Under the pieces are notes generated by a model. That model was given only the letters and a program-made list of their open reading frames with translations. It did not search any database and was not told the DNA's origin. A program made the translations under genes and the position numbers. This document shows positions 17,473-54,441 of a stretch of 64,000 bases of DNA, in pieces (positions within the stretch are counted from its first letter, which is position 1; each line of letters opens with the position of its first letter). The stretch comes from Hemerocallis citrina (taxonomy: Eukaryota; Streptophyta; Magnoliopsida; Asparagales; Asphodelaceae). The DNA is taken from positions 186,988,813 to 187,052,812 of the forward strand of contig CM030362.1 in assembly GCA_017893485.1 (NCBI GenBank). Direction: 5' to 3'.

Positions 17473-18071
17473 TGTTGATTCTTGGTTTTGATGACTACAA
17501 CACAATGCAAAGTTGTGCTACTTCTTATATAATGCAGGATGTATCAATGTCCATACTATGTATGATACACAAGTGCAAAAGTGCTCCAATGAAGCTCTCA
17601 AAGAAAATTGATCAAGGTACAAAGGCTCAAGCTCTTATTTAAGACTGAAGACTGAAGACTGAAGACTCAAGACTCAAGACAAGACCCGTGCTTCAATGTG
17701 TTATTAAATGTCTTGTAAAGCAAATTGTAATCTTATTTTTATTGAGTCTTAGATTGATGTAACAGCCTTGTCATACACACACACTCACAAATCTTTATAA
17801 TTGAGTGTTTTTCAAAAGATTAAAGGTCGAAACAGTTTGAATTAGATCAGCCGTTAAGTACCAGTGGACTGCCTTATGGCACCAGTCAACTGTACCAGTA
17901 CAAAACTATCTGAACTTTTTCAAACTCTGGTCAGTCGACTCATCATGGCAACCCAGTCGAATGTTCAAGTCGTTTCGATAGATTTAAAACTTGTTTTTCG
18001 AATTCAAAAGTTTTATATCCATTTTAAATTAGTTTTATTGACTGTTTTACAACGTCCTAGTGATTCCTCTC

Positions 18072-18079
18072 TATAAATA
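18072..18079 (+). promoter_or_regulatory. TATA box in 5' LTR of SIRE-like Copia
   Basis: TATAAATA lies inside the near-palindrome CTCTATAAATAGAG and is conserved at 26508-26515 in the other LTR. Transcription would start about 30 bases downstream, near 18105, placing the hairpin array in the RNA leader. Confidence 0.75.
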
Positions 18080-18329
18080 GAGCCCAAGAATCACCATTGA
18101 AAGGTCCCAAAGAATTTTTGATAAAGAGTTTAAGTTTTGCTTTTGAAAGAGAACTAGTATTCAAACAAGCACTCTAAATCATCTAAGTCTTGGTTCTCTG
18201 AATCTCAGTCCAATATAACATTGATTTTGTTTTGGACTGATTTCAGAAGTGACCAATTAGCCACTATACAAAAATAACAACCACAAAATAAGGCTATAGG
18301 TTGATTGTATCTCTTTTATTGTTTTCTTT

Positions 18330-18443
18330 CACTCTCGGGTTGTGAGAGTGGTCCTCTCAGTTGGAGAGTAGGGCTCTACATTGTAGAGTCATGTTTTCAC
18401 TCTTGGTTGAAGAGTGGGTTTGCTCTCTCTAGTGGTGAGAGAG
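18330..18443 (+). other. Array of five stem-loops in LTR leader
   Basis: Five consecutive short inverted repeats are visible: CACTCTC/GAGAGTG (18330-18350), CTCTC/GAGAG (18354-18368), CTCTACA/TGTAGAG (18374-18388), CACTCTT/AAGAGTG (18398-18416) and CTCTCTC/GAGAGAG (18423-18443). Loops are similar, with GGTTG or AGTTG in most. The array is conserved in the other LTR at 26766-26879. It would be transcribed as part of the leader RNA. The function is unknown. Confidence 0.8.
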
Positions 18444-18924
18444 GTCTACGGGTTGGAAAAGGTTGTTGTCTAAATGCCGTAGGGTATTCTTGTATTTTTT
18501 TCAAGAATAGTGGAAAATCTCAAGTGGGTTGCTGGAGGACTGGATGTAGGTTGGAAGGACCGAACCAGGATACATCATGTGTACTTTGTGGTTGTATTTC
18601 TCTGAACTTGCATTTTCTTTACTTGCATTTAATTCTTATTCGAAAACTTGTCTAGACAGTCGACTGCGTCTCCTCTTTAAGTCGACTGGTCAGACTGGTA
18701 TAACATACTATTCGAAAACTTGTCTGGCAAGTCGACTATTTTCCGCTATAAGTCAACTAATCAGACTTGTCTCAAATACTCTTCTAATTTGATGCCTCAG
18801 TCGACTTATTTCTCTTTTAAAGTCCACTGGACAGAACAAAAAGTTCAATTTCGTTATTAATTTTTATACAACACTATTCACCCCCCCTCTAGTGTTTCTT
18901 GGCTTGCCTACAGGATTCAACACT

Positions 18925-18936
18925 TGGTATCAAAGT
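18925..18936 (+). promoter_or_regulatory. Primer-binding site of SIRE-like Copia
   Basis: TGGTATCAAAGT follows the LTR end after two bases. It matches the initiator-methionine tRNA primer site consensus TGGTATCAGAGC except at two positions. The second internal region has TGGTATCAAAGC at 27364-27375. Confidence 0.85.
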
Positions 18937-18949
18937 AAGGTTGAGTGCA

Positions 18950-20767
18950 ATGGCAACTACTTCTAATGCAAACCAATACCATGAAGGCCAATCCACACAA
19001 AGGCCACCCCTCTTCGATGGAACCAATTACAACTATTGGAAGTGTAGAATGAAGATCTACCTTAAGTCCATCAACTATGAGATATGGAACATGACGGAGA
19101 CCGAGTACACCACTCCTACCATTCCATATGCACAATGGAACGAAGACATGAAGATCCAAACAATGAAGAATGCAAAGGCGATGAACGCGCTATTTTGTGC
19201 TCTTACTAAGGAGGAATTCAATCATGTGTCCAATACAACAACCGCACATCAATTTGGCACACACTCGAGGTAAACTCATGAAGGAACTAATAAAGTAAAA
19301 GAATCTAAAATATCTATTCTTATTCACAGGTTCAAGATGTTCCACATGAAGGAAAATGAGAATGTGTCTGAAATGATCACAAGGTTCACGGATATTACCA
19401 ATTCTCTTGTGGCGCTTGGAAAGACATACACTCAATATGAAATGGTGAGGAAGGTTCTTCGTGCACTAACCCCCGAATGGGAGAAGAAGACCACCGCCAT
19501 AGAAGAGGCCAACGATTTAACACAACTTTCTCTTGAGAATCTTGTAGGAAATCTCATGCAATATGAGGTACAACTTGAAGAACGCAAGAAGAATCTTGAA
19601 CCTCAACAATCTAAAAAGAAGACACTAGCATTCAAGGCCATGTCGGACTCCGAGGATGAAGTAGAAGATGAGGAAGAGATAGCCATGTTCACACGAAAGT
19701 TCAAAAAGTTCCTAAGAAAAGGTAAATTTAATTCAGAATCTAAGGACACTAATGAACTTCCAACTTGTTTCAGGTGTAACAAGACAGGACACATGAAAAA
19801 GGATTGCCCACAAGAGAATGCAAAATCTAAAGAAAAGGCATCCAACTTCAAGAATGACAAGTACATAAAGAACAAGTTCATGAAGAATAAAAAGGCGTAC
19901 TAAGCAACTTGGGATGATAGCGACTCTTCATCGGAAGAAGAAAATGAAGTGACAAACTAGGTTGCTAACGTTTGCTTTATGCTGTCTCAAAATCAAGTAA
20001 GTGATGATTATGATTCTAATGATTTAGTAGATGCTTTCAACGAGATTTTTCAAGAGCTTAAGAAAGAAAAAGTTAGAGTTAAGAACTTGGAGAAAGTAAA
20101 TCAAACACTTTCTCAAGAGAATCTTGACTTAGATAAAGAGGTGAAATCTTTAAATTCTCGACTTTCTAGTTTAGATATAGATCTTGTGTCTCTAAAGAAA
20201 AATTATAAAGAGATATCCAAAAATGTATCTAAATTTAATAAAGGAAAGGAGAATTTAAATGATGTTCTCCATAATCAAGTACAAACTAATAAAAGATTTG
20301 GACTTGGTTTTCAAAAGTCTCTTGAAAAACCTCATGCTTCTAAGAACACTAGTGTAAATAAACCTATATATATTTCTAGTGTTAAGAATAAACTGTATGA
20401 GTTGTTTGGAAATCCAAAAACTGTAAGTTTTAATGAAAAGAGTAGATCTATAGTTCAGATCAGTCGACTGAACACAAATATCAGTCGTCTGTCCAGAGGT
20501 TCTGAGTCTCATTCAAACAGACGAAAACCTCAGATAAGTCGACCTATTCTACCTCCCAGTCGATTGGATTTCAGTAACAGTCGACTGAAAGGTTTGGTAA
20601 AGTCGACTGGACAGAGCAAAAATATATGGGTTCCAGTCAACCTGAGTCTGAAAGATAGAATTATTTACATAAATTCATATATTCTTACTGTATGTAACTC
20701 TGTAAATTATTTTTCAGCATTTGGTGGAAAATCAAACTCTATTTGGGTTTGGTTTCCCAAGAACTAA
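18950..20767 (+). pseudogene. gag: Gag of SIRE-like Copia
   Basis: The start is the ATG at 18950 (MATTSNANQY). Typical Copia gag motifs follow: PPLFDGTNYNYWKCRMKIYL near the N-terminus, then the second gag domain (MITRFTDITNSLVALGK) and a CCHC zinc knuckle CFRCNKTGHMKKDC (about 19768-19809). A long coiled coil (LKKEKVRVKNLEKVN, 20059-20250) ends in a linker encoding repeated Ser-Arg-Leu, where CAGTCGACTG motifs occur at 20461 and 20578. A frameshift near 19250-19275 and stops near 19902 and 19960 break it. The sister copy at 27389 shares the structure but carries different lesions. Confidence 0.88.
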
Positions 20768-22204: not shown

Positions 22205-22210
22205 GTCAAG

Positions 22211-23240
22211 TTGACTGATGTGAATCAGTCGGCTAATGGACTAGTCAAGTCGACTGATCCTGTTGTGATGTCTTCGACTTTACCAAAATCTTTTGTTGAA
22301 GTTAGAGATCATCCTCATGACTTAATAATTGGTGACATTTTACGTGATATTCAGACAAGATCTCATGTTAACATGATTTCTCACATGGCTTTCTTGTCGG
22401 ATTTTGAACCGAAGAATATACAAGAAGCTTGTGAGAATGAGTTTTAGATGAATGCCATGAAAGATGAGTTAAACCAATTTATAAGGAATGATGTATGGGA
22501 TTTAGTTCCACGACCTCCTGATCATACTATAATTGGTACCAAATGGGTATGCAAGAATAAGTTAGATGAATCAGGACAAGTCGTTAGGAACAAAGCTGAC
22601 TAGTTGCTCAAGGATATAATCAAGAAGAAGGCATGGATTGTAATGAAATATATGCTCCTGTTGCTAGACTAGAATCAATTGGTATTTTATTTTTTTTTCT
22701 TGTTTGATGAATTTTACACTTTTCCAAATGAATGTTAAAAGTGCTTTTCTTAATGGGTTTATAAAGGAAGATGTTTATGTTAAGCAACCACCTGGTTTCA
22801 AACATGAACAATTCCCAAACCATGTTTTTAAATTGAAAAACTTTATATGGTCTTAAACAAGCACATCGTGCTTGGTATGATCGATTGAAGACTTTTCTTT
22901 TAGAAACAGATTTTGAAATAGGTAAAGTACATACTACTTTGTTTATTAGGAGAACTGAGACTGATATTTTGATTATACAAATATATGTAGATGACATAAT
23001 TTTTGGTTCTATTAATAGTAATCTATGTCAAGAGTTTGCTAATACCATGAAAAATGAGTTTGAGATGAGTCACATGGGTGAACTCAATTATTTTCTTGGA
23101 CTACAAATTAAACAGTCACCAAATGACATATTTATTAATCAAGAAAAATATGCTAAGGAATTACTCAAACGATTTGGCATGGATAGCACGAGTAGTAAGA
23201 CCATACCTATGGCTACTACCACTACCCTTGACAAAGATGA
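22211..23240 (+). pseudogene. Reverse transcriptase of SIRE-like Copia
   Basis: Recognisable pieces in order are the linker (SHMAFLSDFEPKNIQEAC), the fingers (IGTKWVCKNKLDE), MNVKSAFLNG(F) with aspartate preserved only in part, and the catalytic IYVDDIIFGS (about 22981-23010). MSHMGELNYFLGLQI and QEKYAKELLKRFG follow. Several frameshifts between 22440 and 22885 and stops break the frame; the part from 22885 on is open. Confidence 0.88.
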
Positions 23241-23937: not shown

Positions 23938-24521
23938 AATTTTAACTCTGGTAAGTCGACTTAAAACTTCTTTTCGGTCGACTGACCAAGTATTTTTCGA
24001 TACCTATCTATATCTGAAATTCACGCTCTGGTAAGTCGACTGTGAACAGTCCTAAGTCGACTGCCAGTTGTATTATTACTGTTTTCGTTTATCTATTTTG
24101 CTCTCGACTAAGTCGACTGATCCTACACTCCAGTCGACTGTCGCGAATCAGCTCTTCTTTCAGATTCGAAATTGGCACTTCTTTTGAGGCAAAACTTTTA
24201 CCTTTTGTTACCCTTTGACCGTTTTGCACCTTTGATTTCCCCCAGCCTCAATCTCAGCTATTGATTCTTAGTAAAAACCCTAATTTTTACTTTCCTTCTT
24301 TTTCACTTTCTCTTTCACTGTCTCTCTACAAACCGAGCTCTAGAAGCCGGCTGCTCTCAAACCCATCGGTGATTCCAGTTTTTGAAGCCCAAATCGAAGC
24401 TTTCTTTCCAATTTCAAGTGGTTTTCCAAGGTCTCTTGAAGCTATTGTGCTTCTCTTTACCTCTCATTGTTGGTATAATCCCTTGATTCCTTTCTTTGTT
24501 TATTTTCTAGAGTTTTCTCTT
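23938..24521 (+). other. Spacer between pol and extra ORF, rich in AGTCGACT palindromes
   Basis: Six copies of AGTCGACT or a close variant occur at about 23955, 23976, 24036, 24054, 24110 and 24131. The right part has a long pyrimidine tract ending TTTATTTTCTAG at 24510, a good splice acceptor placed 11 bases before the ATG of the next ORF. A spliced message for that ORF is therefore plausible. No other coding domain is visible. Confidence 0.6.
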
Positions 24522-25559
24522 ATGCCTCCTAAAAGATCCCGTAGTTCTAATGTTGAGGAGGGACAATCCACAAAGGATTATCTCCCGTATTTAAGAAGTC
24601 CAAGTCTTATTGATAAATGGTACATAATTTGTTCTATTGTTATTTTTCCGGGAAAATTTGTTAATTTTCCGGATCTTGATAGGTTTCCTTTAGTCCCATT
24701 GTTTGAACAATGTGGATTATTTGATTTGTTGTCCTTGGTGAACCAATCCTCTTACTACCCTCAACTTATATATTTGTTTTACACAAATATGAAGGTTGTT
24801 ACATCGGAGAATGGTAGCGAGATATTTATACTATCTTCAATAAAAAATATCTGCATGAAAATCACCCCTGCTAGATTAAGACTTATTTTGGGCCTGTCTG
24901 ATGAAGGGATTGATATAGGAGATGTTGAGATGGATGATGACACCATATTGTCAAGAATTTATTTGCCAAATCGAGGTCCTCCTATGACCAATCAATCAAT
25001 TATTCCTATTGCTAAGCTAGTTGTACGCATACTGTCATATAACATTATTCCCAAAATAGGGAGTTATAACCAGTATTCCCATGAGATGCAACAAGCCGTT
25101 TATGCAATTTTTGGAAATATTAAAATAAATTGGGGTCAAGTCATCTTTAATCGTCTTCATAAGACTCATTCTTCATTTCTTTCTTTTGGTGCTTTACTCA
25201 CTCACATCTTCTCTGCTTATGAAGTTGATCTCGATTCTGAGACGAGTGTTGTAAAACACTACGAGTCCTTTGATCGTTCAAGTTTAGCACGTATGAAGCT
25301 TCTCACCTCTCCACCTCGTAGGAATACACCTCCTATCCCGTTAGCTTCTACCGCTCGTCGGTTTTCTGCTTCTAGTTCGTCTCGTCCTAGAGCTGATTAT
25401 GATGATTCTAGGGGTCTTTACATTTCTGTCAATTATATCATGGATCGTCAAGACACTCTTAAGGCCAGTCTTTCTCATTTTACTCACTTGTTCACTTCTC
25501 AGTTTCCACCTCCACCTTCTCCCTCTCAGGGTGCTCAAGACGAAGATGACGAAGACTGA
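24522..25559 (+). CDS. Extra ORF of SIRE-like element, putative plant transposon-type protein
   Basis: I choose the ATG at 24522 (MPPKRSRSSNVEEGQS) because it follows a strong splice acceptor and because MPPKR-like starts are common in this protein group. An in-frame upstream ATG at 24261 would add a simple serine- and leucine-rich stretch. The product is 345 residues with no stops. The pattern FPLVPLFEQCGLFDLLSL, YPQLIYLFYTNMK and ICMKITPARLRLILGLSDEG resembles the domain annotated as putative plant transposon protein. The C-terminus is basic and serine-rich with a final acidic tail (DEDDED). SIRE elements are known for an envelope-like ORF at this place, but I see no convincing signal peptide or fusion-type features. 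The function is unknown. Confidence 0.75.
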   Translation: MPPKRSRSSNVEEGQSTKDYLPYLRSPSLIDKWYIICSIVIFPGKFVNFPDLDRFPLVPLFEQCGLFDLLSLVNQSSYYPQLIYLFYTNMKVVTSENGSEIFILSSIKNICMKITPARLRLILGLSDEGIDIGDVEMDDDTILSRIYLPNRGPPMTNQSIIPIAKLVVRILSYNIIPKIGSYNQYSHEMQQAVYAIFGNIKINWGQVIFNRLHKTHSSFLSFGALLTHIFSAYEVDLDSETSVVKHYESFDRSSLARMKLLTSPPRRNTPPIPLASTARRFSASSSSRPRADYDDSRGLYISVNYIMDRQDTLKASLSHFTHLFTSQFPPPPSPSQGAQDEDDED

Positions 25560-25916: not shown

Positions 25917-27361
25917 TGTTGATTCTTGGTTTTGATGACTACAACACAATGCAAAGTTGTGCTACTTCTTATATAATGCAGGATGTATCATTGTCCATAC
26001 TATGTATGATACACAAGTGCAAAAGTGATCCAATGAAGCTCTCAAAGAGAATTGATCAAGCTACAAAGGCTCAAGCTCTTATTCAAGACTCAAGACTCAA
26101 GACTCAAGACAAGACTTGTGCTTCAATGTGTTATTAAATGTCTTATAAAACAAATTGTAATCTTATTTTTATTGAGTCTTAGATTGATGTAACAACCTTG
26201 TCACATACACACTCACACATCTTTATAATTGAGTGTTTTTAAAAAGATTAAAGGTCGAAACAGTTTGAATTAGATCAGCTATTAAGTACCAGTTGACTGC
26301 CTTATGGCACCAGTCGACTGTACCAATACGAAACTATCTGAACTTTTTCAAACTCTGGCCAGTCGACTCATCATGGCAACCCAGTCGACTGTTCAAGTCA
26401 TTTCGAAAAATTTCAGAATTTAAAACTTGTTTTTCGAATTCAAAAGTTTTATATCCATTTTAAATCAGTTTTATTAACTGTTTTACAACGTCCTAGTGAT
26501 TCCTCTCTATAAATAGAGCCTAGGAATCACCATTGAAAGGTCCCAAGCATTTTTGATAAAGAGTTTAAGTTTTCGCTTTTGAAAGAGAACTAGTATTCAA
26601 ACAAGCACTCTAAATCTTCTAAGTCTTGGTTCTCTGAATCTCAGTCCAATATAACATTGATTTCATTTTGTACTGATTTCAGAAGTAAACTATTAGCCAC
26701 TATACAAAAATCACAATCACAAAACAAGGCTATAGGTTGATTGTATCTCTTTTATTGTTCTCTTTCACTCTCGGGTTGTGAGAGTGGTTCTCTCAGTTGG
26801 AGAGTAGGGCTCTAGGTTGTAGAGTCAGGTTTTCACTCTTGGTTGAAGAGTGGGTTTGCTCTCTCTAGTGGTGAGAGAGGTCTACGGGTTGGACAAGGTT
26901 GTTATCTAAATGCCGTAGGGTATTCTTGTATTTTTTTTCAAGAATAGTGAAAAATCTCAAGTGGGTTTCTTGGGGACTGGATGTAGGTCGGGAGGACCGA
27001 ACTAGGATACATTGTGTGTACTCTGTGGTTGTATTTCTTTGAACTTGCATTTTCTTTATTTGCATTTAATTCTTATTCGAAAACATGTCTGGACAGTCGA
27101 CTGCGTCTCCTCTTTAAGTCGACAGGTCATACTGGAATAACATACTCTTCGAAAACTTGTCTGGCAAGTCGACTGTTTTCCGCTTTAAGTCAACTAATCA
27201 GACTTGTCTAAAATACTCTTCTAATCTGACGCCTCAGTCGACTTATTTATCTTTTCAAGTCGACTGGATAGAATAAAAAGTTCAATTTCGTTATTAATTT
27301 TTATACAACACTATTCACCCCCCCCCTCTAGTGTTTCTTGCCTTGCTTAAAGGATCCAACA
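25917..27361 (+). repeat. 3' LTR of SIRE-like Copia, shared with a second internal region
   Basis: It matches 17473-18922 from TGTTGATTCTTGG to GGATCCAACA. It is preceded by a purine tract (3' LTR context) yet followed after two bases by a primer site (5' LTR context), so it serves both units. It contains a TATA box at 26508-26515 and the hairpin array at 26766-26879. Confidence 0.95.
26766..26879 (+). other. Array of five stem-loops, second LTR copy
   Basis: It has the same series of inverted repeats as 18330-18443. The third hairpin differs: here CTCTA-GGTTG-TAGAG instead of CTCTACA-T-TGTAGAG, keeping the stem and giving the common GGTTG loop. Confidence 0.8.
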
Positions 27362-28714
27362 CTTGGTATCAAAGCAAGGTTGAGTGCAATGGCAAATACT
27401 TCTAATGCAAACCAATACCATGAAGGCCAATCCACACAAAGGTCACCCCTCTTCGATGGAACCAATTACAACTATTGGAAGTGTAGAATGAAGATCTACC
27501 TTCAGTCCATCAACTATGAGATATGGAACATGACGGAGACCGAGTACACCGCTCCTACCATTCCATATGCACAATGGAATGACGATATGAAGAGCCAAAC
27601 AATGAACAATTCAAAGGTGATGAACGTGCTATTTTGTGCTCTTACCAGCTCTTACAAAGGAGGAATTCAATCGTGTGTCCAATGCAACAACCGCACATCA
27701 AATTTGGCACACACTCGAGGTAACTCATGAAGGAACTAATAAAGTAAAAGAATCTAAAATATCTGTTCTTGTTCACAGGTTCGAGATGTTTCGCATGAAG
27801 GAAAATGAGAATGTGTCTGAAATGATCACAAGGTTCACGGATATTACAAATTCTCTTGTGGCGCTTAGAAAGATGTACACTCAATCTGAAATGGTGAGGA
27901 AGGTTCTTCGTGCACTAACCCCCGAATGGGAGAAAAAGACCACCGCCATAGAAGAGGCCAACGATTTAACACAACTTTCTCTGGAGAATCTTGTGGGAAA
28001 TCTCATGGCGTATGAGGCACAACTTGAAGAATGCAAGAAGGATCTAGAACCTCAACAATCAAAGAAAAAGACACTAGCATTCAAGGCCATGTCGGACTCT
28101 GAGGATGAAGAAGAAGATGAGGAAGAGATAGCCATGTTCACACGAAAGTTCAAAAAGTTCCTAAGGAAAGGTAAATTTAATTCAAAATCTAAGGATACTA
28201 ATGAACTTCCAACTTGTTTCAAGTGTAACAAGACAGGACACATGAAGAAGGATTGCCCATAAGAGAATGCAAAATGTAAAGGAAAGACGTCCAACTTCAA
28301 GACGGACAAGTACATAAAGAACAAGTTCATGAAGAACAAAAAGGCGTACCAAGCAACTTGGGATGATAGGGACTCTTCATCGGAAGAAGAAAATGAAGAG
28401 ACAAACGAGGTTGCTAACGTTTGCTTTATGGCGTCTCAAAATCAAGTAAGTGATGATTATGATTCTAATAATTTACTAGATGCTTTCAATGAGATTTTTC
28501 AAGAGCTTAAGAAAGAAAAAATTAGAGTTAAGAACTTGGAGAAAGTAAATCAAATACTTTCCCAAGAGAATCTTGACTTAGATAAAGAGGTGAAATCTTT
28601 AAATCCTTGACTTTCTAGTTTAGATATAGATCTTGTGTCTCTAAAAAAAAATTATGAAGAGATATCCAAGAATGTATCTAAATTAAATAAAGAAAAATTA
28701 TGAAGAGATATCCT
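27362..28714 (+). mobile_element. Second SIRE-like internal region, truncated
   Basis: After the LTR at 25917-27361 a second primer site and gag follow, highly similar to 18923-20230, and stop abruptly in the coiled-coil part. At the break the 20-base block AAAATTATGAAGAGATATCC occurs twice (about 28650 and 28694), as often seen at repaired double-strand breaks. The LTR-internal-LTR-internal order can arise by recombination between two elements or by partial loss of a tandem pair. Confidence 0.88.
27389..28714 (+). pseudogene. gag: Gag of the second SIRE-like copy, truncated
   Basis: It starts MANTSNANQYHEG at 27389 and carries the same gag domains, then the zinc knuckle CFKCNKTGHMKKDC. An insertion of about 10 bp near 27640 (a repeated CAGCTCTTAC) shifts the frame. 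A TAA at 28260-28262 stands where the sister copy has CAA. The coiled coil continues to 28607 (TGA) and similarity is lost after about 28714. Confidence 0.88.
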
Positions 28715-36463: not shown

Positions 36464-36690
36464 TACACCCCACCTTTAGAAATCAGCGTCCTCGCTGAGT
36501 ACGGGATACACATCTAGTGTAGGATCCGCCTTTCTAGCCGTTGTAGAATAGTCATCGATCCCACGAAATGTGTAGAAACACCCGGTACATAAAAATGCAC
36601 CCTGCCTATCCGGAGAATCATCTCCCTACCGTGAACTAGATCATAGGCCCTCTTCTACACTCGGTGTCGAAAGTCGGCTCTGATACCATT

Positions 36691-43600: not shown

Positions 43601-44128
43601 ATTTTGTGAACAAAAGAAAGGAAAGGGCTGCTGCTACTATTGTAGGTCAGGATTGTATTATCTATGGTTTTACGGAAATTTTACAACCCCCCCCCCCCCC
43701 CCCAAGAAATCAAATTGTGTACAAATATGTATATCTCGAAATTTAGATTAATAAAACAAAATAACGGTAAGATTTTATCTCCCCCTAATCACCCTGATTT
43801 GGCTGGCCCACATGCAGCCAAGGGGGTTTCGAAATTTGAATTTTGCTTCCAAGTGGTAATTTTACACAAAAGTCCTTCACTTTGATATATTTGCAAACAT
43901 GCCTTAAATTATTCATAAAAATCCCGAAAATTTAGATTTATTATGTACTGATAAAGATTATATTTTTCAAATGAATTTTTTGAATTTTTATTTCCCAAGA
44001 AAAATATTTGCACGTGTTTTGCACGTGCAAAATGTTAAATTTCAGAAAAATGCTTAATAAATCACAGAAATTCACCTTAAATCAATTATTAATTTCAAAA
44101 ACATATTTAAAATTTCTAGGATGTTACA
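40603..44128 (-). repeat. 3' LTR of Tekay-like element (3526 bp)
   Basis: It matches 48915-51527 joined to 54447-55415. It contains A runs near 42415-42530, a 17-base C tract near 43686-43703 and AAACCCTA-type boxes near 42688-42715. No coding region is credible in it. Confidence 0.94.
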
Positions 44129-44256
44129 TTACTCCGTCCTTAGAATAGTTCTATCCTCAGAACTACCGGTAATAGGGAAAAGAAACAACTTCAAGCAAAA
44201 GAATAAAATTACACAAAGAGTTCAGGAAAATCATTCTTCATGCGGTCCTTCGGCTC

Positions 44257-44640
44257 TCAAGTGGCCTCCTCGAACAACTGATTCCTCCACAATACCTTGA
44301 CCAAAGGTATGACTTTACTCCGCAACACCTTCTCCCGTTGATTAACAATCTCCACACGCAGCTCCTTATAGTTCAAGTTTAGTTGCAGTCCATCAGGCAC
44401 TTCCGTCAACTGATGACTCTGATCTGGCACATACTTTCTCAACATCGACACATGAAACACGACATGCACTTGTGCCAATTCTTCGTGCAATTCCAACTTG
44501 TACGCCGCTTTACCGGTTCGCCTCAAAATTTTGCATGGCCCAATGTACCTCGATGCCAACTTGCCTTCTTTCCCAAACCTGATTGCCCCCTTCGTCGGAG
44601 ATACCTTAAGGAAAACTGTATCCCCAACCTCGAACTCCAA
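44257..44640 (-). pseudogene. Integrase C-terminus with chromodomain-like end, Tekay-like element
   Basis: The frame shows MEFEVGDTVFLKVSPTKGAI and LASRYIGPCKILRRTGKAAY, the Gypsy integrase tail, then HVVFHVSMLRKYV. A chromodomain-like stretch closes it: VNQREKVLRSKVIPLVKVLW. Chromodomains can direct insertion towards marked chromatin in chromoviruses. The final residues (FEEAT) are followed by a stop. Confidence 0.85.
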
Positions 44641-45515
44641 GTCCCTACGCCGAGTATCTGCATAACTCTTTTGCCGGCTCTAGGCTTCGACTAATCTCTT
44701 CCGAATCAGTTCAATCTTCTCTGACGTCTGCTGCACAATCTCTGGCCCAAACATCTGCATCTCTCCAACTTCGTACCAACAGATGGGTGTTCTGCACTTC
44801 CTTTACAAAGCTTCGTAAGGTGCCATACCGATACTTGCACGGTAACTATTTTTGTAAGAAAACTCAATCAATGCCAAATACCTCTTCCAACTGCCACCAA
44901 AATCCATGATGCAAGATCTCAACATATCCTCCAATACTCGATTCACCCTCTCTGTTTGATCATTGGTCTGTGGATGAAAAGCAGTACTGAAGTATGTTCT
45001 GGTACCCAAGGTTATTTGCAAACGCCTCCAAAATCTCGATGTGAACCTCGCATCCCTGTCAGAAACAATAGACACGGGAACTCCATAAGTCTCACAATCT
45101 CTTCGAGGTACAGCTCTGCCAGCTTCTCCAAGGACCATGTAATCTTCATAGATAAGAAATGAGCCGACTTGGTCAAACGATCCACAATGACCCAAATCGA
45201 GTCGTTGCCCTTTGGTCTTCTGGGCAAACCAGTGATAAAATCCATGTTGATATTCTCCTACTTCCATTCTAGTATAGGCAACGAATGCAACAAGCCTTCA
45301 GGCTTCTGATTCTCTGCTTTGACTTGCTAACAAGTTAAACATCTTACCACGAAATCAGCAACATCCCCTTTCATTCCTGTCCACCAAAAGTGCTGCGTGA
45401 TGTCCTTGTACATCTTCGTACTTCCAGGATGTACTGATAACAAGGTATTGTGTGCTTCTTGTAAGATGCTCTCTTTCAAATCTGCACTCTCCGGGACACA
45501 CAATCTCTCGCCCAT
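44641..45515 (-). pseudogene. int: Integrase zinc domain and core, Tekay-like element
   Basis: The zinc domain ligands appear in LQEAHNTLLSVHPG, HFWWTGM and VVRCLTC (45327-45470). The core has MDFITGLPRRPKG, IVSDRDARFTSRFW and HPQTNDQTERVNRV for the three acidic residues (about 44880-45245). A stop at 45327 and a frameshift near 45100 break the frame. Confidence 0.88.
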
Positions 45516-46344
45516 CTATAGAACTCCATCTTGGACACAAAATTCTGATAGCTTGCCATCGAAAATCTGCTGTAACATTCTCTGAATCTTTGCATCTGAT
45601 TTCTGATCCTCCATAACCCGTTCCTTCAATGTGGACTGAATCCTCAACTGTGCCAATGATGCTCGCAATCCTTGCAGTACAACCTCGATACCTGCCCGAT
45701 CTAACTCTACTGCCAACTCCTTCTGCGCCGTGATCAAACTTGACAGGCTACTCTTCCGACTGAGCCCATCAGCTAACACTTTTAATCACCTTGCCTAGAT
45801 GATACTTGTTCTCAGGATGAATGTTATCCAATACCCCAATCACCTTCTCTGCCGAAGATTCAGACCCTTTTTCTTATAAATGTACTTCAAGCTTTTATGA
45901 TCAGTAAACATATTGACCTTCTCTCCATATACATAATGCCTCCACTGCTTCAAAGCAAAGCTAATAGCTGCAAGCTCCAGATCGTGCATCAGATAGTTCT
46001 TCTCATGAGGACACAACTGCCTCGAACCATAAGTAATAATCTTCCCTTCTTGCATTAAGATGAAACCCAAACCTCTATGTGACACATCACTGTAAATATC
46101 ATAGTCTTTCCCAGCTTGCGGCAAAGCTAGAATAGGTGTTGTCTTCAACCTCTCCTTCAACTATAGAAAACTTGCCTCACATTTATCATTCCAAGTGAAA
46201 TTCACATTCTTCTTGGTCAACCCTAGGAACTACAGTCAATGCATAGCCTTGAATGAACCGCATGTAGTACCATGCCAATCCTAAGAAACTTCTGATCTCC
46301 TTCACAGTCATCGGTCTAGGCCAACTCTTCACTGCTTCAATTTT
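45516..46344 (-). pseudogene. RNase H and spacer, Tekay-like element
   Basis: [36 protein letters not shown] and [20 protein letters not shown] (45840-46160) identify the RNase H. LADGLSRK lies near 45770. The frame then runs through the spacer before integrase (LSEFCVQDGVL). Several stops and at least one frameshift are present. Confidence 0.88.
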
Positions 46345-46985
46345 CTAAGGATCGGTGGTCACTCCCTCCTTAGAAAGGATATGGCCTAGGAATGTCACCT
46401 CTGACTTCCAAAATTCACACTTCGATAGCTTTGCATACAAATCATGCTCCTGCAATTTCTTCAACACTTTGGCTAAGTGCTCAGCATGCTCCTTTTTCAA
46501 TTTCGAATAAACCAGTATATCATCAATGAATACCACAACGAAAGAATCAATGAATGGCCGCAAAATCCGATTCATCATATCCATAAACACTGCCGGCGCA
46601 TTCGTTACCCCGAATGGCATCACCAAAAACTCATAAAGTCCATGCTGAGTTCTGAAAGCTGTCTTGCTTACATCCTCCTCTTTAACTCGGACCTGATGAT
46701 ATCCTGATCGCAGATCAATCTTCAAAAATACTACTACCACCTGAAGCCTATCAAATATGTCATCAATCCATGGAAGTGGGTACTTGTTCTGAATGGTCAC
46801 CCTGTTCAATTCCATGTAGTCGATGCACATCGTCATTGAACCATCATTCTTCTTTACTAGCAACACAAGTGCACCCCATGGCGATGTACTCAGCCTGGTG
46901 AACCCCTTACTCAACAATAACACAATCTACTTCTTTACCTCATCTTGCTCTAGAGGTACCATCCTGTATGGAGCATTAGATATTG
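46345..46985 (-). pseudogene. Reverse transcriptase, Tekay-like element
   Basis: The open part shows [75 protein letters not shown] and the catalytic [11 protein letters not shown]. The catalytic aspartates are intact. Upstream on the minus strand the entry region [13 protein letters not shown] can be read near 46960-47000. Confidence 0.92.
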
Positions 46986-47076
46986 GAGCACTTCCTGGCT
47001 GAACATTGATGCAGAACTCAACATCTCGCTACGGCGGTAACCCTGGTAGATCTTTCAAGAACACAATAGGAAAATC

Positions 47077-47541
47077 TCAGACAACTGGAATTTCCCTGAC
47101 CTCAGTTGGAATCATCAATTCTGATATAGCTGCAATCACCTTTGAGTTTCCCTTCTTCCCCTGAAAAGTTACCGTAGATCCTCCTGGTGTCTTCACTATA
47201 ACTTCTTTATTCTTGCATTCAATTGTAGCATCATAAATTGACATCCAATCAATGCCCACAATCACATCTATACCCAAGACCTGCAGTTCAATGAGATCGA
47301 TTCCGAAAAGCCTTCCACCGATCTCGATATCACAATCCTCATAATACCGATCAACAATCAACTCCTTCCCTAATGGTGTTGCCACTAACAAGACCCAATC
47401 TAGAAAAATCATAGGTTCCACACCTAACACTTTAGCAAAATTGTGCGACACAAATGTATGCGAAGAACTAGTATCAAATAAAACCTTTGCTTTTATTCCA
47501 TTAATCAAAACATATCCTGTTACATGAAGAATGATACTCAA
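47077..47541 (-). pseudogene. Protease, Tekay-like element
   Basis: The active-site segment reads AKVLFDTSSSHTFVS; the usual DTGAS or DSGAT has lost its glycine. VLGIDVIVGIDWMSIYDATI is the conserved C-terminal block (GxDWL type). Loss of the active-site glycine should impair the enzyme. Confidence 0.87.
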
Positions 47542-47649
47542 AGCTTCATTTTATTCTTAAACAAAGTCTTATTTAATACATCCAATGAATAAATTAAAAT
47601 TCTTGCATACCTTGGATCACATCTTCTGAGTTACCCGTATCCTACCTCA

Positions 47650-48665
47650 GTCAATGCAAACACTCACCCTTGCCACTGGAATTTGCTCCCATTTGCACCA
47701 TCCCTCTTAAGCTGCGGGCAATACGGCTTGGTATGACCCTCTCGCCCACACTGATAGTAAGTCTGAACCATTGCTGGTTTGGGGCATGCTGAACTATAGT
47801 GACCCGCTTCTCTACAATTGCAGCAAGTCACACTGATCAGGCCCACTGAATTGTTGTTACCTTCTGATCAGGCCCACTAAATCTGCCTTTTTTCTTTGGG
47901 AAATTCTTCCCTCTCTGATTTGTTGCTGCTGGCCTCTTATTTCTGTTCCAGGTTGCCTCCTTCTTCTGGAATAGATCCATATCCTCCTCGGTTATGAATG
48001 CCCCCTGATAAGTTTATCGAATCCCTTGATCCCTAATGGTATCATTTGGGATCTCAAATTCGGCCTCAAGCCCTGTTCGAACTTTCTTGCCTTCTTTGCT
48101 TTGTCAACTACTAGCTCCAATGCATACCTTGACAACTGCATGAACTTAGTCTCATACTCATGCACCGACATATTGCCCTGCTGCAGGTTCAGAAACTCCA
48201 TCGCCTTCTTCTCCTGAATGTACAAGGGGAAATAGTATCCCTGAACTCACCAAGGAAGGCCTCCGAAGTCACCTGCTCTTGAACAAAAGTTCTCTTCACA
48301 AACTGTTACTAGACGCCAGCGTCTTTTTTCAATTGCATTGTAACCAATTTCACCTTGTAGGCTGTGGGGGTTTTCAAAACCTCGAAGACCATCTCAATTT
48401 TCCTTATCCAATCATCAGCCTCATTGGGATCAGTTTGCCCTTCGAAAACTAGCGGCTTCATCCGCTTGAAAGATTCCACTTGTTTGATAGGGTTTGCATT
48501 AATAGGTACTGGCCATGCTCCTTGATTTCGAGTCGCACTAGCTTCTACAAAAGTATTCAGAGTCTGATAGCCTCTGGCAATCTCCATCTCCAAATCAAGT
48601 CTGCCCCCGTGGGAACCTTCAGCCCCATCGTCACTCCTACCATTCCTAGTCCTGGGTCCTGCCAT
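47650..48665 (-). pseudogene. gag: Gag, Tekay-like element
   Basis: The likely start is MAGPRTRNGRS at 48665. Gag motifs follow: PLVFEGQTDPNEADDWIRKI and VTMQLKKDAGV, then two consecutive stops near 48307-48311 where a Trp-Trp pair is usual. After a frameshift come LNLQQGNMSVHEYETKFMQL and FEQGLRPNLRSQM (47992-48225). Two zinc knuckles lie at 47690-47830: CCNCREAGHYSSAC is complete, but the second (YYQCGREGHTKPYC) has lost its first cysteine. Confidence 0.88.
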
Positions 48666-48898
48666 TTTACTGAATACTGCAAAACACATGAATCTGTTAG
48701 AGCCCCACTACATAAATCATATTCATTCCAACTGCCCATTGCAGAAATCAATTCATACTCTTAAGTAATAACAAATCATTTCATTTAGTTTAGTTTCATG
48801 TTTAATACTCACACTCTAATGTCCACCAATGTACTCACGCTATAGTGTCCACCTAGGTTCATTCCCTATACCATGTTTACCATTACTAATTGAAGCTT

Positions 48899-48910
48899 GC
48901 CCTGATACCA
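48899..48910 (-). promoter_or_regulatory. Primer-binding site of Tekay-like element
   Basis: TGGTATCAGGGC on the minus strand, four bases from the 5' LTR, matches the initiator-methionine primer site at 11 of 12 positions. Confidence 0.85.
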
Positions 48911-51527
48911 ACTCTGTAACGCCGCGAATTTCCAATAAATAAAATTAGAAATAAGTGGCACAATTTCCAGAATTAATTTCAATTGCAATCATAAACACAG
49001 TATCAAATGCAGGAAAAATTAAAACTTTTTATTTCTATCTTTTCTTTTTACAGAACATAACGGAATTAAACACATTAATTATAAATCTTTACAACATATA
49101 GAATCTTCAATTTGTATTTAAACTCCAAGCTTTATTTGCATCGATGCTACCAATAATTGAAACCTGCAAAAGTCTATTGAAAAGTGGGCACGTCAGTTAA
49201 ATGTAATTGACGTCAACTATAGTAATAGTGAGACTACTAAATCTCACAACCGCAAACTTGATGCATATTAATAAGACAATAATAAATGATGCATAAACAG
49301 TAATAAATAGGACATAGAACAATAAGCGAAGCATATTAGTATAGCAATAATAAATGGAACATAAAACAACGATAAATGAAGCGTAAAGCAGCAAGTGAAG
49401 CTAGGCCAAGTTTCAAGTGTATGAGATGAACACAGAAAGCAAGCATGCATAAAACAAGTCAAGAAACTCAAATGTATATGATGATCTCTAATGCATACTT
49501 GTCGGATTCTATACCCCCCATACTACATAGGTCCGGTGCAAGCCCTTATCGTTCTCTACTTTATAAGGTTGAATCCATCGTTATGCAACTAATCTACTAC
49601 AGTGATTACCTTAAGTTTTAGACATAATGCGCATACCTAGACCATGCCTCGATAATTCTAACGTCAATCTCTATCCACAGATAATTCAGGAGACTATTTC
49701 ACTCAGACCTGGGAAACTTCGAGAATACCCCACACCGCAAGCAATGACGCCTCACCACACGTAGACATGCCATGAGTGTTGCCTCGATCCTGATAATTTC
49801 GGAGATCAATCCCACACCGCCGGTAATTCCGGAGACTATTTCACTCACACCTCGATAATTGCGGGGATCATCTCATACCGCAGATCATATGAGGCCCCTA
49901 TATCCATGTTTGCTCTTATTTCATCACAATTCCAACTAGTGCATGTCCATATGTTTATTATTATTAATTAAATCACAGTCCCCCTCTAGAGTTGATGTAC
50001 CCAACCGGACATAACTCTACAAACCAGGAACCAAGGCCCCACTGGCCAACTTCCTCAAAATCTCAATTTGCTGGCACACTAGGGTCCCACTCAACCTCTA
50101 GAGTATCATAACTCAAAATTATACGCAAACATTCTTTTAATTCATTGAATTCGTCTACAGCCAGTTTAAATTATTCCAAAACGACTATATTTCAATTCAT
50201 ATGATATCTCTTTCCATATTTTGAAATCCATGTATTTAAATATGAAATTAAAACACATAAAAAAAACTAATATTAATCAACTAAAAATCTGAAATTTAAT
50301 TATACTCAGAAATCTAATATTATATGTTTCTCTAAAATATGAAATTATACTCGTTAATGTATGAAATTATGAAATTCCAAAACTGAAATAATGTCCATTA
50401 GGTTTGAACAATATCCTACCATATTTGAAATATTCACATACCCAATCTATTATACAAATTTGAGGCACAAGAAGAAAAATCTTCAATATGAATCATTAAA
50501 TTAACAAAAATCCAAAATAACAACTAACGAAGAAATGGGATGTACACATTCTAAGATGTATAAATGAAAACCGAAATTTAAGAAATTTGAACCAGAAATC
50601 TAAAACTAAATTCTCAAAAACTGAAGTCTTAGAATCAATATTCTATAACATTAAAATTTATTAAATTGATTTTCCACTCAACACACTTTTTTCTTTTTTT
50701 TTATCCTTCTTTATTTAAAAGCTTTAGAACAAAAAAAAAAAAAAAAAAAAAGCTTTAAAAAAAAGAACTCGAAAGAAACATAACCAAATCTTTAAAAACT
50801 CAAAAACTCAAAAAAAACTTAAAAAAAAAAAAAATCAAAACTGGGCTTCCACCCTGGCTTGAACCCATGCAACCCCGCACAGCGCCCAAAATCCCCATGG
50901 GCTAGCCAACTCCCTAACTGCCTTTTCTGATTAAAAAGGCATTCAAAAATTTATGTGTCAAAAAACACTGTACAGATTCCATGTCTTGTACAAACCCGAA
51001 ACCCTATAACCCCAAACCCTAGCACAGTAACCCAGTTACTTTTCACCCTATGAACAGTGAAACCCGAAACCCAAGAAACTCCAATTCAATCATACAACAA
51101 TTATTCAAACCCTAATATTAAACTTGGTCTTTTATTAATTAAAAACGAATAAACATGAAAAATCTCAACTTTAAGATCAATCAAGCATGAATCTAAGAGC
51201 ATACAACGAGTTCTAATTATCTCTACAAATCTTCATCATCTACAATTTAAATCTATGATCATCAAATAAATTTTATAGATCCCAAATTAAATTTTTATCA
51301 TCTAAAAATTTGTATTTGCATGTTCATGTTAATCTCTAGGTTGTAATATTATAACCCAATATTTAATACACAATTCATCATCATACAACAAGTTTATAAA
51401 TCATGATGAGTTCCTTCATATGTGTCTAACATCAATAAACATTTTCATTTTCCTTTTAACATGAATCAATGGAGTTCTAGTTCCATGAAAAATATCAATA
51501 ACACCTTCATTCGTCATACACACATTC

Positions 51528-54441
51528 TGTAACACCCCGAATTCCAATTACAACTAAATTCGAAGTTCCACAGGATCTTTACACTTCTTTCGTACAATTT
51601 TACAAAGAAATTGAAATATTTCTTACATCAGAGTTATATTATACCTTTACATTATTACAGCGGAAGCAATTTTACAGTAATTACATGAAACAACATTTAA
51701 ATCAATCTTTGAGCAGCATGTATACTTCAAGTTGTCAAGCATCTTTACCCTATATGTAAAACTGTGGGCGCGTCAGTCCATTCACCGACGAAATATTATA
51801 CACGGCTATCCTCTCTATGCCGGAAACAGTATAACGATTCTCAATACTTAGCAAACCACAAACTTGTTCACAAACAAAACTAAAGGGACTATCCTATTGA
51901 TGTCGTGTTGTGCTGTGCACTTAGTCCTTAATGCAGTTATTATGTTATATGACACTAATGCGCACTTGTTCGGATTCTATGCATCCCATACTACGTAGGT
52001 CCGAGGGCAAGCCCTTAATCGTACTTCATCTTATAGGATTCAATCCCTTGCCATGACCTAAACTATTACGGTAACTACGGTAAGTATCCTAGATGTTCTA
52101 TGATCTACGAGCCCATGTCCAGGCAGTCTGGAGGGGAATCCCACGCACTGACATGACGCATCAAGCAGGCAGACTATGGACAATTCAACCTCTGCCATGG
52201 AACGATGGCACCACCTGCAGTCACCAAACACCCCACAAGCGTCACCACCGGGACGATAATTTCGGAATAGTGCTCACGCCATGTTATGACGCATCAAGCA
52301 GGCAGTCTGTGAATCACTCTCACACCGCCAATCCGATGGCCCTCATACTCGTGTTTTTCTTTCACTTTCGTCACATCACCACTATGTGTCTAAATCCTTA
52401 GTTTATTTGAATCATGAATAAAATCAACCCATAGAGTTAGCTCTTCCTCTATACCGGTCTCAATCAACAACATGACCAACTTGGTCTTTCATCTCAATTA
52501 TTCATAAAAAAAAATATAATTCATTCACTTGCCGGTAATAGGACTTAGCCACCCTCTAGTTCAAAATCTCATTTCATGTCCATAGCATTTGTGTATTCAT
52601 ATTCATAAAACCTTTCATAATTCATCAGAATATTTAACTTCACTTTCATGTACAATTTTCATGCATAAGACAAAATAAATTCATTTTCTAACTTGTCACA
52701 TTCAATCTTCATTCTTTCCATTATCAAATCTCTTTTCAAACTCTTTTAAGTAATACATTTATTTTCATCAAGAGATAATTCAAAATCTGAGAAATCAAAA
52801 TAGTCTGGACAGTCGACTGTTAAACTTGGCAAGTCGGCTGTTCTGTAAAGATTTAAAAACTCGAAATGAAAAGGATCAGGGCAGTCGACTGTTAAACAAG
52901 ACCAGTCGGCTGTTCTGCGATGCTTTAAAAACTCAAAAATAAAATGGATGGGGCAGTCAACTGTTAAACATATACGGTCGACTGTTCTGCGAGAATTACA
53001 ACTCAAAGAACTAGATACCCAGGACAGTCGACTATTAAACAAGATCAGTCGGCTGTTCTGCGATGCTTTAAAACTCGAAAATAAAATGGACGGGGCAGTC
53101 GACTGTTCAACATATACGTTCGACTGTTCAGCAACAAAATTCGAAATTTGGAATCATTTCGTCTTTCTTTTTGATTAACACCCAAATTGTTCATTCCATA
53201 ACTTTGTATAAATTGCAAAAAGTTCATTTTTCCGATAACTAACATACAGCTTTAGGATTTATTTAGCATCAATCACAACAAGCATAATTTACTATCCCAT
53301 ATGGAGGTTCTTACACAATTTCTAAAATTTCACTTTCACCTAAATCATGGTATTATCAAAGAACAATATTTTCATCTATTTAGTTTAATGTGATTAGCAC
53401 AAAACCTGTCATGGTACTACTTAGAAGTAGAGAAAATTGTCCACATTTATCAATTAGCAATCATCTTCACAATCCTTCTCTAAATTATCATTCCATCTCT
53501 AATCTATCAAGCATGAGACTAAAATTTCTTGATTTTTTTATAACCACTTATCAAATCATTCCTAGCATGGCATCTAAATTAGAAGTCATGAGAAACACCC
53601 ACTTATTTTGGAGAAAATGAAATGAACGCTCCTAGAATGCAAGAAAGTGGCATTCTCCTCCTAGAATGTATTGCAATTGCCTTCTCTTCCTTGGTGCTTG
53701 ATTGGAACCCGAAACCACCAATGCTCTTTGGGTGCTAGCCGGCCTCCTCTAGAATGGAACACACACAATCTTACTCTAATCTTTCTCTTACTATTGTCTC
53801 TCAATCTTTTACTCTCTAGTATGTGTCTTTCTCTTATAATGAAAATAGGTGCAAGAATGACTAATGAAAAAGGGGGTATTTATACATAATTTTAGTAAAA
53901 ATAAAGGGTTAGGATTAAAATCAAATAGTTAGGAATTAAAGGCTAGGATGAGTTTGGAAGTTGCCATAACCACCCATGAATGAGATAACCACCTCACCAC
54001 TACTCCCATCTCTCCCTCTCTCTTGATTCCATCCGGCCAAACTCCCAAGGGGGTGTGCTTTGCACACTCTTGTGCAAGCACGTGCTACCCTAGTGTCCCC
54101 CACTTACAAGTTGTACATGTTAGTTTAATTAATTGTCTATTATTTGAGTCTACACTACAAGTTAGACTAAAATAAAGATTAATTAAATTACATGGGCTCT
54201 CTAATGGGCCAAGGGACTATGGGCTCTACTAATTTAATTAATTAATTAACTAATGTGTGGGCTACAAAAGACAAATTAGGCTTAGGATTAGATTAGGCTT
54301 CTAAGAAAGTAAATGGGAATTACTAATTTATGAAATAATTTAGAGAAGTGTATACATAAATTTTTACGTGCACAACACATAAAAAGAAAAAATCAAACAA
54401 ATTTCAAGTATAAATAGGATTTGAAAATCCAGGGTGTTACA
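51528..54441. mobile_element. Solo LTR of a related Gypsy family (2.9 kb)
   Basis: It begins TGTAACACCCCG and ends AGGGTGTTACA, flanked by CATTC (51523-51527) and TATTC (54442-54446), a duplication with one mismatch. The corresponding site in the other Tekay LTR (about 43215-43225) is uninterrupted. Its middle (51700-52100) resembles that LTR, for example in CATACTACRTAGGTC, so it is a relative. It has no coding domain, as expected after recombination between two LTRs. Strand by similarity would be minus. Confidence 0.88.
52800..53135. repeat. 72-bp tandem repeat with paired GTCGAC motifs in solo LTR
   Basis: About five units start with GGRCAGTCGACTGTTAAAC at roughly 52808, 52880, 52951, 53022 and 53094. 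Each holds two boxes, CAGTCGACTG and CAGTCGGCTG or close variants, about 25 bp apart, followed by CTGCGATGCTTTAAAACTCG and a purine-rich tail. Confidence 0.85.

What the first reader, a model, noticed from the sequence alone, without database searches (positions are those of the whole stretch)
17932..53110. Palindrome CAGTCGACTG recurs in three unrelated retroelement families
The 10-bp palindrome or its AGTCGACT core is in the SIRE-like Copia (LTRs near 17932, 18657, 18680, 26309, 26381, 27094, 27166; gag linker 20461 and 20578; spacer 23955-24140). It is also in both TRIM repeats (36409, 36429, 36918, 36938) and in the solo LTR array (52810-53105). It is often paired 20-25 bp apart. A 10-mer so frequent in distinct families suggests a shared binding factor, sequence exchange, or a self-propagating motif. 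The half-site contains CG, so methylation could matter.
Basis: seen in the sequence. Interest (0 to 1): 0.85.

Follow-up and report, generated by a model that had tools for sequence, protein, structure and literature searches.

The report
Shared paired palindrome in unrelated retrotransposons
The same ten-letter palindrome, usually in pairs about two DNA turns apart, recurs in unrelated families of jumping genes in one plant genome, which suggests that one DNA-binding factor may serve several of them.

Summary
CAGTCGACTG occurs 14 times in the window (0.05 expected) and 337,030 times in the 3.78-Gb host genome, against 756 for the backwards control. The boxes come in pairs: AGTCGACT...AGTCGACT gives 224,687 places against 76, and 96 of the 100 listed are spaced 18-22 bp, about two helical turns. 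Paired boxes occur in a Sirevirus-like Copia, two Gypsy lineages and a TRIM. Between families the sequence inside pairs is no more alike than shuffled. In homologous sequences boxes differ at 4.0% of sites, others at 20.4%. Outer flanks share C at -5 and G at -3; inner flanks do not; no covariation was found. This favours a protein-read dyad over an RNA hairpin. Palindromic repeated motifs are known in Sireviruses (PMC2829016; Vitis CGGTCGACCG) but were called Sirevirus-specific with a CGG-CCG core. Sharing with Gypsy and TRIM elements and the fixed pair spacing look new. The binding factor is inferred, not shown.

The parts
17473..18925 (+). 5' LTR of the Sirevirus-like Copia element
   Evidence: 94.5% identical to 25917-27370 over 1436 aligned sites; TATA-like CTATAAATA at LTR position 599; run of C near its 3' end
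17862..17963 (.). box cluster A in the 5' LTR, two pairs spaced 21 and 22 bp, upstream of the TATA-like site
18657..18829 (.). box cluster B in the 5' LTR, downstream of the TATA-like site, partly tandem units of about 72 bp
20461..20609 (.). box cluster inside the gag-linker open frame; four boxes read as S-R-L, the last as K-S-T-G
   Evidence: frame 19961-20767; boxes; by eye the two homologues P0001 and P0002 read differently there
22208..22256 (.). three boxes just after the integrase open frame and before the reverse transcriptase frame
23953..24140 (.). three box pairs just upstream of the envelope-like frame
   Evidence: CpG observed/expected 1.55 here, 0.72 for the window
24219..25559 (+). 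envelope-like open frame, 446 codons; PF20167 at 44.5 bits, cut-off 45
   Evidence: three homologues with PF20167
25842..25914 (+). two AGGGGGAG polypurine octamers (25842, 25907), the last starting 10 bp before the 3' LTR
25917..27370 (+). 3' LTR of the Copia element, with box clusters at 26290-26391 and 27094-27266
36182..36972 (-). TRIM element in a LINE: 282-bp LTRs 98.6% identical, GTTCA on both sides, TGGTATCAGAGCC beside an LTR
   Evidence: primer-site-like sequence seen directly
36409..36438 (.). TRIM box pair in one LTR, spacing 20 bp
36918..36947 (.). TRIM box pair in the other LTR, spacing 20 bp
51528..54438 (-). LTR of a truncated Gypsy element (limits inferred)
52810..53126 (.). 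Gypsy LTR array: five box pairs (the last second box with two mismatches), spacing 21 bp, period 71-72 bp
40603..51527 (-). related Gypsy element whose LTRs (40603-43218, 48915-51527) hold no box with at most one mismatch: internal contrast

Best explanation
The unit is a pair of 10-bp palindromes CAGTCGACTG whose starts lie 18-22 bp apart, about two helical turns, so that both boxes face the same side of the DNA. SHOWN: the boxes are hugely over-represented, mostly paired, and present in a Sirevirus-like Copia, two Gypsy lineages and a TRIM; they are conserved beyond their surroundings, with shared outer-flank letters (C at -5, G at -3) and no such letters inside the pair. INFERRED: the pair is a cis-regulatory module bound by a host DNA-binding factor, probably two dimers side by side, which the elements need for expression or for keeping the LTR accessible; unrelated LTRs have gained or kept the module separately, and some arrays then grew by tandem duplication of about 70-bp units. 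A host factor is preferred because the TRIM has no room for a gene and, in the parts of the boxed Gypsy elements that were read, no further gene common to all was noticed; this was not a systematic search.
For: Genome count 337,030 against 756 control. Pairs 224,687 against 76; 96 of 100 listed spaced 18-22 bp of an allowed 8-38. The 18-22 bp step dominates in each family group. Exact boxes of one sequence differ in its homologue at 49 of 1213 sites (4.0%), other sites at 6868 of 33652 (20.4%), in 38 ordered comparisons of 19 pairs; choosing boxes that are intact in one member would by itself be expected to halve the divergence, and the ratio seen is 0.20. Of 100 listed TRIM sites (of 1131), 97 have or begin a second box; the interior falls into seven groups that differ from each other at a mean of 4.7 of 10 positions (six 10-base groups), while the commonest first box is CAGTCGACTG in all seven. 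Outer flank C at -5 in 82 and G at -3 in 75 of 126 half-sites; in L054/L055, fetched after the rule was seen, 10 and 11 of 18. One-step variants gather at box positions 1/10 and 4/7; CpG transitions are 1 of 21 variants in the 200-kb sample, 3 of 25 in the window and 3 of 97 in chosen box loci. Gag-linker boxes are read in two frames.
Against: No binding, expression or methylation data. The Gypsy at 40603-51527, 74% identical over 4.9 kb to the internal part of a boxed relative, has no box in its 2.6-kb LTRs, so some elements do without. Positions vary: upstream and downstream of a TATA-like site in the Copia and the second Gypsy, about 850 bp into the chromovirus LTR (LTR start judged by eye). 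In the gag linker the box/other divergence ratios were 0.84, 0.56, 0.71, 0, 0.43 and 0.43, and one LTR comparison gave 1.07, so conservation is not uniform. TRIM half-sites do not clearly show the flank letters (C in 1, G in 2 of 4). A few box pairs have other spacings (10, 13, 29, 30, 33, 36 bp; 29, 32, 36, 37). The 44-58 and about 70 bp steps are not whole helical turns. Copies within a family are related by descent, so counts are not independent events.
Confidence: 0.5

Rival explanations
1. Element-encoded trans factor: one element family, for example the Sirevirus-like Copia with its envelope-like gene, makes a protein that binds the boxes and keeps the DNA active, as VANC proteins do for VANDAL transposons; TRIM and Gypsy elements exploit it.
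For: Boxes lie in LTRs, linkers and just upstream of the env-like frame and some form tandem arrays, as VANC targets do. The TRIM has no room for a protein of its own.
Against: The VANC21 motif is arrayed in one orientation and rare outside one family; these boxes are palindromic and shared. Pfam showed no known DNA-binding domain in the env-like frame, only a PF20167 match just under the cut-off; no fold was predicted.
Confidence: 0.15
2. RNA or cruciform hairpin: the two boxes pair with each other and act in dimerisation, packaging or small-RNA production, as discussed for maize Sirevirus palindromes.
For: Each box is complementary to its partner; maize palindrome-rich LTR regions are small-RNA hotspots (passages of PMC5311732 and PMC10760457).
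Against: No compensating changes: flanks 241 matching cells against 253.6 by permutation (p 0.84), boxes 551 against 551.8 (p 0.66); of 22 columns one, at -9, reached p 0.04. Inner letters 36 complementary of 76 against 40.2 (p 0.91).
Confidence: 0.12
3. Neutral spread: the pair is a selfish minisatellite-like unit copied by tandem duplication and template switching and kept without function.
For: Two arrays are tandem repeats of about 72 bp. A 25-bp stretch including a box, 92% identical, is shared by the Copia LTR and its own gag linker.
Against: Interiors are unrelated between families and boxes are more conserved than their neighbours; copying would carry neighbours along.
Confidence: 0.1
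4. Epigenetic target: the CG and CHG sites in the box make it a preferred place for host DNA methylation or its readers, so that the host benefits.
For: The box holds CAG, CG and CTG. The outer flank letters form C-N-G together somewhat more often than independence predicts (55 against 48.8 of 126, Fisher p 0.02). Among 175 parsed TRIM boxes 133 were exact, 10 had a CpG transition and at least 15 a C-to-T or G-to-A at an outer end. CpG observed/expected is above the window's 0.72 in four of the five box clusters measured on their own.
Against: Elements would be expected to lose such a target, and CpG transitions are a minority of variants in the LTR loci. Methylation was not measured.
Confidence: 0.1

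Closest known systems
Sirevirus repeated motif (RM) boxes, Bousios et al. 2010, PMC2829016 (abstract and sections 6, 7, 9, 10, 13, 19 read)
   Same: Short palindromes in high copy in the LTR upstream of the TATA box, with further copies just before the envelope-like gene; the Vitis RM CGGTCGACCG differs from CAGTCGACTG by one transition on each side.
   Different: RMs are called Sirevirus-specific and absent from classic Ty1/copia elements, with a CGG-CCG core in 12 of 13; here the core is CAG-CTG, boxes come in 18-22 bp pairs, and Gypsy and TRIM elements carry them. No pair spacing is given in the sections read.
Maize Sirevirus LTR palindromes as small-RNA hotspots (Bousios et al. 2016 seen only as a citation, not held; passages of PMC5311732 and PMC10760457 read)
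   Same: Palindrome clusters in the LTR cis region; PMC10760457 reports the maize Copia palindrome also as the most abundant motif of structured regions in Helitrons (10.7% of them), so cross-superfamily sharing has been glimpsed.
   Different: Different sequence; small RNAs could not be tested here.
VANC anti-silencing target motifs of VANDAL transposons, PMC5735166 (abstract and sections 8 and 9 read)
   Same: Short motif in dense arrays, mainly non-coding, turned over by tandem repeats.
   Different: Nine-base motif in one orientation, rare outside VANDAL21, bound by that family's own protein.

Membership tests
Sirevirus (for the Copia element 17473-27370) | Ty1/copia gag and pol domains | tested here: met
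   Retrotran_gag_2, zf-CCHC, rve, RVT_2
Sirevirus (for the Copia element 17473-27370) | AGGGGGAG octamer starting 10 bp before the 3' LTR | tested here: met
   octamer at 25907, LTR at 25917
Sirevirus (for the Copia element 17473-27370) | several octamer copies in the linker (3 to 5 per element in the paper's Table 2) | tested here: inconclusive
   two exact copies, 25842 and 25907
Sirevirus (for the Copia element 17473-27370) | AT/TG attachment site (20 of 21 elements in the paper, so not universal) | tested here: not met
   AA before TG here; for this reason the element is called Sirevirus-like
Sirevirus (for the Copia element 17473-27370) | C-rich signal near the LTR 3' end (17 of 21 elements in the paper) | tested here: met
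   CACCCCCCCTCTAGTG about 40 bp before the LTR end, by eye
Sirevirus (for the Copia element 17473-27370) | envelope-like gene (part of the genus) | tested here: met
   446-codon frame between pol and the 3' LTR; its function as envelope not tested
Sirevirus RM box | palindromic, high copy, in the LTR upstream of TATA and before env | tested here: met
   further copies lie downstream of TATA and in gag
Sirevirus RM box | CGG-CCG core (12 of 13 elements) | tested here: not met
   CAG-CTG in the window; CGGTCGACCG is present in another Copia lineage, L057 and L026
Sirevirus RM box | confined to Sireviruses | tested here: not met
   boxed chromovirus-type and second Gypsy loci and TRIM
Sirevirus RM box | boxes form CpG islands | tested here: inconclusive
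   CpG observed/expected 0.64-1.55 in four Copia clusters against 0.45 for its LTR, but G+C only 40-45%
VANC-type target | motif arrayed in one orientation | tested here: not met
   the box is a palindrome
VANC-type target | bound by an element-encoded VANC protein | not tested
   no VANC gene was looked for
TRIM | short LTRs, target-site duplication, primer site, little room for genes | tested here: met
   282-bp LTRs, internal part about 230 bp, GTTCA duplication, TGGTATCAGAGCC seen directly

The most novel reading that the evidence does not exclude
One factor, host- or element-encoded, binds the paired box as two dimers on one DNA face and licenses much of the LTR-retrotransposon load of this genome (224,687 paired cores), so that unrelated Copia, Gypsy and non-autonomous TRIM elements have converged on a common regulatory address.
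Probability: 0.3. Interest if true: 0.85.

Novelty: new variant of a known kind. Interest (0 to 1): 0.62.

Why it matters
A paired site shared across Copia, Gypsy and TRIM elements in one genome would point to a single trans factor on which several element families depend, and so to a handle on how they escape or attract silencing. The role of Sirevirus palindromes was left open in 2010 (PMC2829016, section 19); the defined pair (box, spacing, outer flank) makes it directly testable by DNA-affinity methods.

Tried and rejected
Chance or composition: rejected. Recent exchange of whole modules between families: interiors show no inter-family similarity. RNA hairpin: no covariation. Peptide-level selection in gag: the same boxes are read in two frames. 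Published account of this exact motif: AGTCGACT with retrotransposon listed 16 of 16 papers, none relevant by title and start of abstract. GTCGACTG with LTR held 497 papers, 20 listed, none relevant; the string 'ltr' matched inside words such as methyltransferase, so this tested little. Palindromic motif with Gypsy, Copia and plant listed 6, none describing it. Hemerocallis with Sirevirus terms listed 8 of 130, none on Hemerocallis. Bousios et al. 2016 is not held.

Not obtained: genome-wide counts of CGGTCGACCG-type boxes or pairs and of the CpG-decayed form CAGTTGACTG. The genome search did not complete.

Rows dropped before counts: one search found 107 pairs and kept 63 after removing near-duplicates (70% or more alike); it left out loci L038, L046 and the 5' Copia LTR. 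One search used only sites without a gap and in stretches at least 60% identical; two of the 100 rows overlap the same copy; in 22 rows the printed match ends before a whole second box (two of these are one-box copies); two spacings of 12 and the interiors 'GA' and 'AA' are parsing artefacts, by my reading of the rows; the group 'TTCGCTGCCA' of that call is the flank of one-box copies and is not counted as an interior, so the mean difference printed there (5.5) was recomputed as 4.7. In the box-loci set some loci overlap (L031 in L057, L045 in L056).
Full report
WHAT WAS CHECKED. CAGTCGACTG is in the window 14 times and its AGTCGACT core 30 times, against shuffle means of 0.05 and 0.63. Apart from the two TA-repeat palindromes it is the commonest 10-bp palindrome there; the next has 3 copies. 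Of 39 sites with at most one mismatch, 26 are in the Sirevirus-like Copia, 4 in the TRIM, 8 in a Gypsy remnant and 1 in a LINE; the intact Gypsy has none.

GENOME SCALE. The window lies in a 3.775-Gb genome. The exact box occurs 337,030 times; its backwards control GTCAGCTGAC, a palindrome of the same composition, 756 times. Base composition of a 200-kb sample predicts about 2,186. In 20 stretches of 10 kb at fixed places on contigs 1-10, 3 held boxes, 12 exact copies in all, so they are clustered. The genome is very probably that of daylily, Hemerocallis citrina: the published assembly is 3.77 Gb (start of abstract) with 90.42% of contigs in 11 pseudochromosomes (passage of PMC8027641). Here contigs 1-11 add up to 3,414,067,270 of 3,775,421,867 bases, 90.43% (lengths, sum), and contig 12 has only 642,500. 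This is a match of sizes, not a sequence test.

PAIRS. In the window and seven fetched loci, 58 of 89 steps between neighbouring boxes (steps up to 130 bp) were 18-22 bp, 27 were 44-58, 4 were 69 or 75, and none 23-43 (L001 and L004 overlap). Genome-wide, two cores with 0-30 bases between them give 224,687 places against 76 for the control; of the 100 listed, 96 have spacing 18-22 (20 in 45, 21 in 35), the others 29, 32, 36 and 37. The listed places all lie in the first 1.1 Mb of contig 1. Two turns of B-DNA are about 21 bp (general knowledge).

FAMILIES. After masking boxes, 20 further loci from contig 1 (chosen from the places), the earlier loci and the window pieces were compared. They group into the Copia, a chromovirus-type Gypsy (L001, L022, L023, L034, L048, L032, L039 and the window array), a second Gypsy (L014, L033, L035-L038, L044, L046, L047) and the TRIM (window and L043); L029, L031, L042 and L045 were unlinked at first. 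L022 shows a Chromo match just under the cut-off; L014 shows integrase core and zinc-binding domains and is 28% identical to L022 over 247 residues. The label Athila-like for this second Gypsy is recalled, not tested. L029 and part of L042 match the Copia pre-env region at 77% and 76%, and L045 lies beside sequence 91% identical to L014. L054 and L055 are judged to be LTRs of another chromovirus subgroup: the same places recur 7.6-7.7 kb further on, and the sequence between, L058, is 78% and 82% identical in protein to L022 and L023, while L054 had no match and L055 only 31- and 41-bp matches to the other loci. A different Copia lineage, L057 and L026, carries the Vitis-type box CGGTCGACCG, with pairs of 20-22 bp and some mixed or singly placed boxes.

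SIGNS OF FUNCTION. (a) Between homologous sequences, exact boxes of one member differ in the other at 49 of 1213 sites (4.0%), other sites at 6868 of 33652 (20.4%), over 38 ordered comparisons. Choosing boxes intact in one member would by itself be expected to halve the divergence; the ratio is 0.20. It was higher in the gag linker (0.84, 0.56, 0.71, 0, 0.43, 0.43) and reached 1.07 in one LTR comparison. (b) The TRIM LTR of L043 matches the window's closely except around the boxes, where flanks and interior differ while both boxes are identical. A pattern anchored in the conserved LTR found 1131 TRIM sites, control 0. Of the 100 listed, 97 have or begin two boxes and 3 have one; interiors fall into seven groups; the six 10-base ones differ from each other at a mean of 4.7 of 10 positions; the commonest first box is CAGTCGACTG in all seven groups and the commonest second box in six (the seventh is a tie of two rows). 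The right-hand flank is much the same in most of them, so these modules are not wholly independent. (c) Outside the pair, C at -5 (82 of 126 half-sites) and G at -3 (75 of 126) recur in the Copia and both Gypsy lineages; information is 0.70 and 0.55 bits there and at most 0.12 bits in any inner-flank column. The four TRIM half-sites do not show it clearly. In L054 and L055, fetched later, C and G stand at 10 and 11 of 18 (binomial p 0.0009 and 0.0002 against 0.2; inner side 4 and 6 of 18); the two loci are homologous, so the true weight is less. (d) One-step variants gather at positions 1/10 and 4/7; CpG transitions are 1 of 21, 3 of 25 and 3 of 97 in the 200-kb sample, the window and the chosen loci.

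WHAT IT IS PROBABLY NOT. There is no covariation between the halves of a pair (flanks 241 against 253.6, boxes 551 against 551.8, inner letters 36 against 40.2; one flank column of 12, at -9, reached p 0.04), which speaks against a base-paired hairpin. In the gag linker four boxes are read as S-R-L and the last as K-S-T-G, so the peptide is not what is kept. By eye, P0001 and P0002, two homologues from other sources, read differently there.

HOW IT PROBABLY WORKS. The best reading is a cis-regulatory module read by a protein: two palindromic sites on one face of the helix with an extended outer half-site, so that the pair rather than the single box is the unit. Copies upstream of TATA-like sites in the Copia and the second Gypsy fit an enhancer; copies downstream and in linkers show that position is not strict. 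Two arrays grew by tandem duplication of about 72-bp units. The factor is unknown; a host protein is favoured because a TRIM with no room for a gene carries the pair. All of this paragraph is inference.

KNOWN RELATIVES. Sirevirus RM boxes (PMC2829016) are the closest: palindromic, many, upstream of TATA and before env. The Vitis RM differs from ours only by G-to-A and C-to-T at the two outer CpG positions, a change that loss of methylated CpG could produce (inference). The paper calls RMs Sirevirus-specific; here that fails. PMC10760457 reports the maize Copia palindrome also in Helitrons, a hint of similar sharing. The motif type is therefore known; the pair rule and the spread across Copia, Gypsy and TRIM are the new part, as far as the searches could show in an open-licence library that lacks at least one key paper.

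LIMITS. Most loci were chosen because they hold boxes, and most lie at the start of contig 1. Copies within a family are related. No molecular data exist here. Counts for the second box type and for decayed boxes were not obtained.

Noticed in passing
window 25917-28696: After the 3' LTR of the Copia element the sequence continues into a second gag region matching the first (17473-20247 against 25917-28696, 93%), as in a tandem LTR-internal-LTR-internal arrangement.
   Followed up: partly
window 2272-3820: Tandem array with a period of about 89 bp in a stretch of 62% G+C.
   Followed up: no
window 36182-36972: TRIM inserted between LINE open frames with a GTTCA duplication; a search with its LTR had 3268 first-look candidates genome-wide, of which 40 were scored.
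   Followed up: partly
L057 1581-1753 and L026 373-538: A second Copia lineage in the same genome uses the Vitis-type box CGGTCGACCG in 20-22 bp pairs, with some mixed boxes.
   Followed up: partly
TRIM copies on contig 1 near 134013593, 134014142 and 196976788: Three of 100 listed copies have a single box, as if the stretch from one box to the other had been deleted (one judged by match length).
   Followed up: no
window 26290-26299: The CpG-decayed form CAGTTGACTG contains TTGAC, recalled as the core of the WRKY W-box, so decaying boxes could seed such sites; genome counts were not obtained.
   Followed up: no
window 24219-25559: The env-like frame matches PF20167, 'Putative plant transposon protein', just under the cut-off; its three homologues carry the same domain.
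   Followed up: partly
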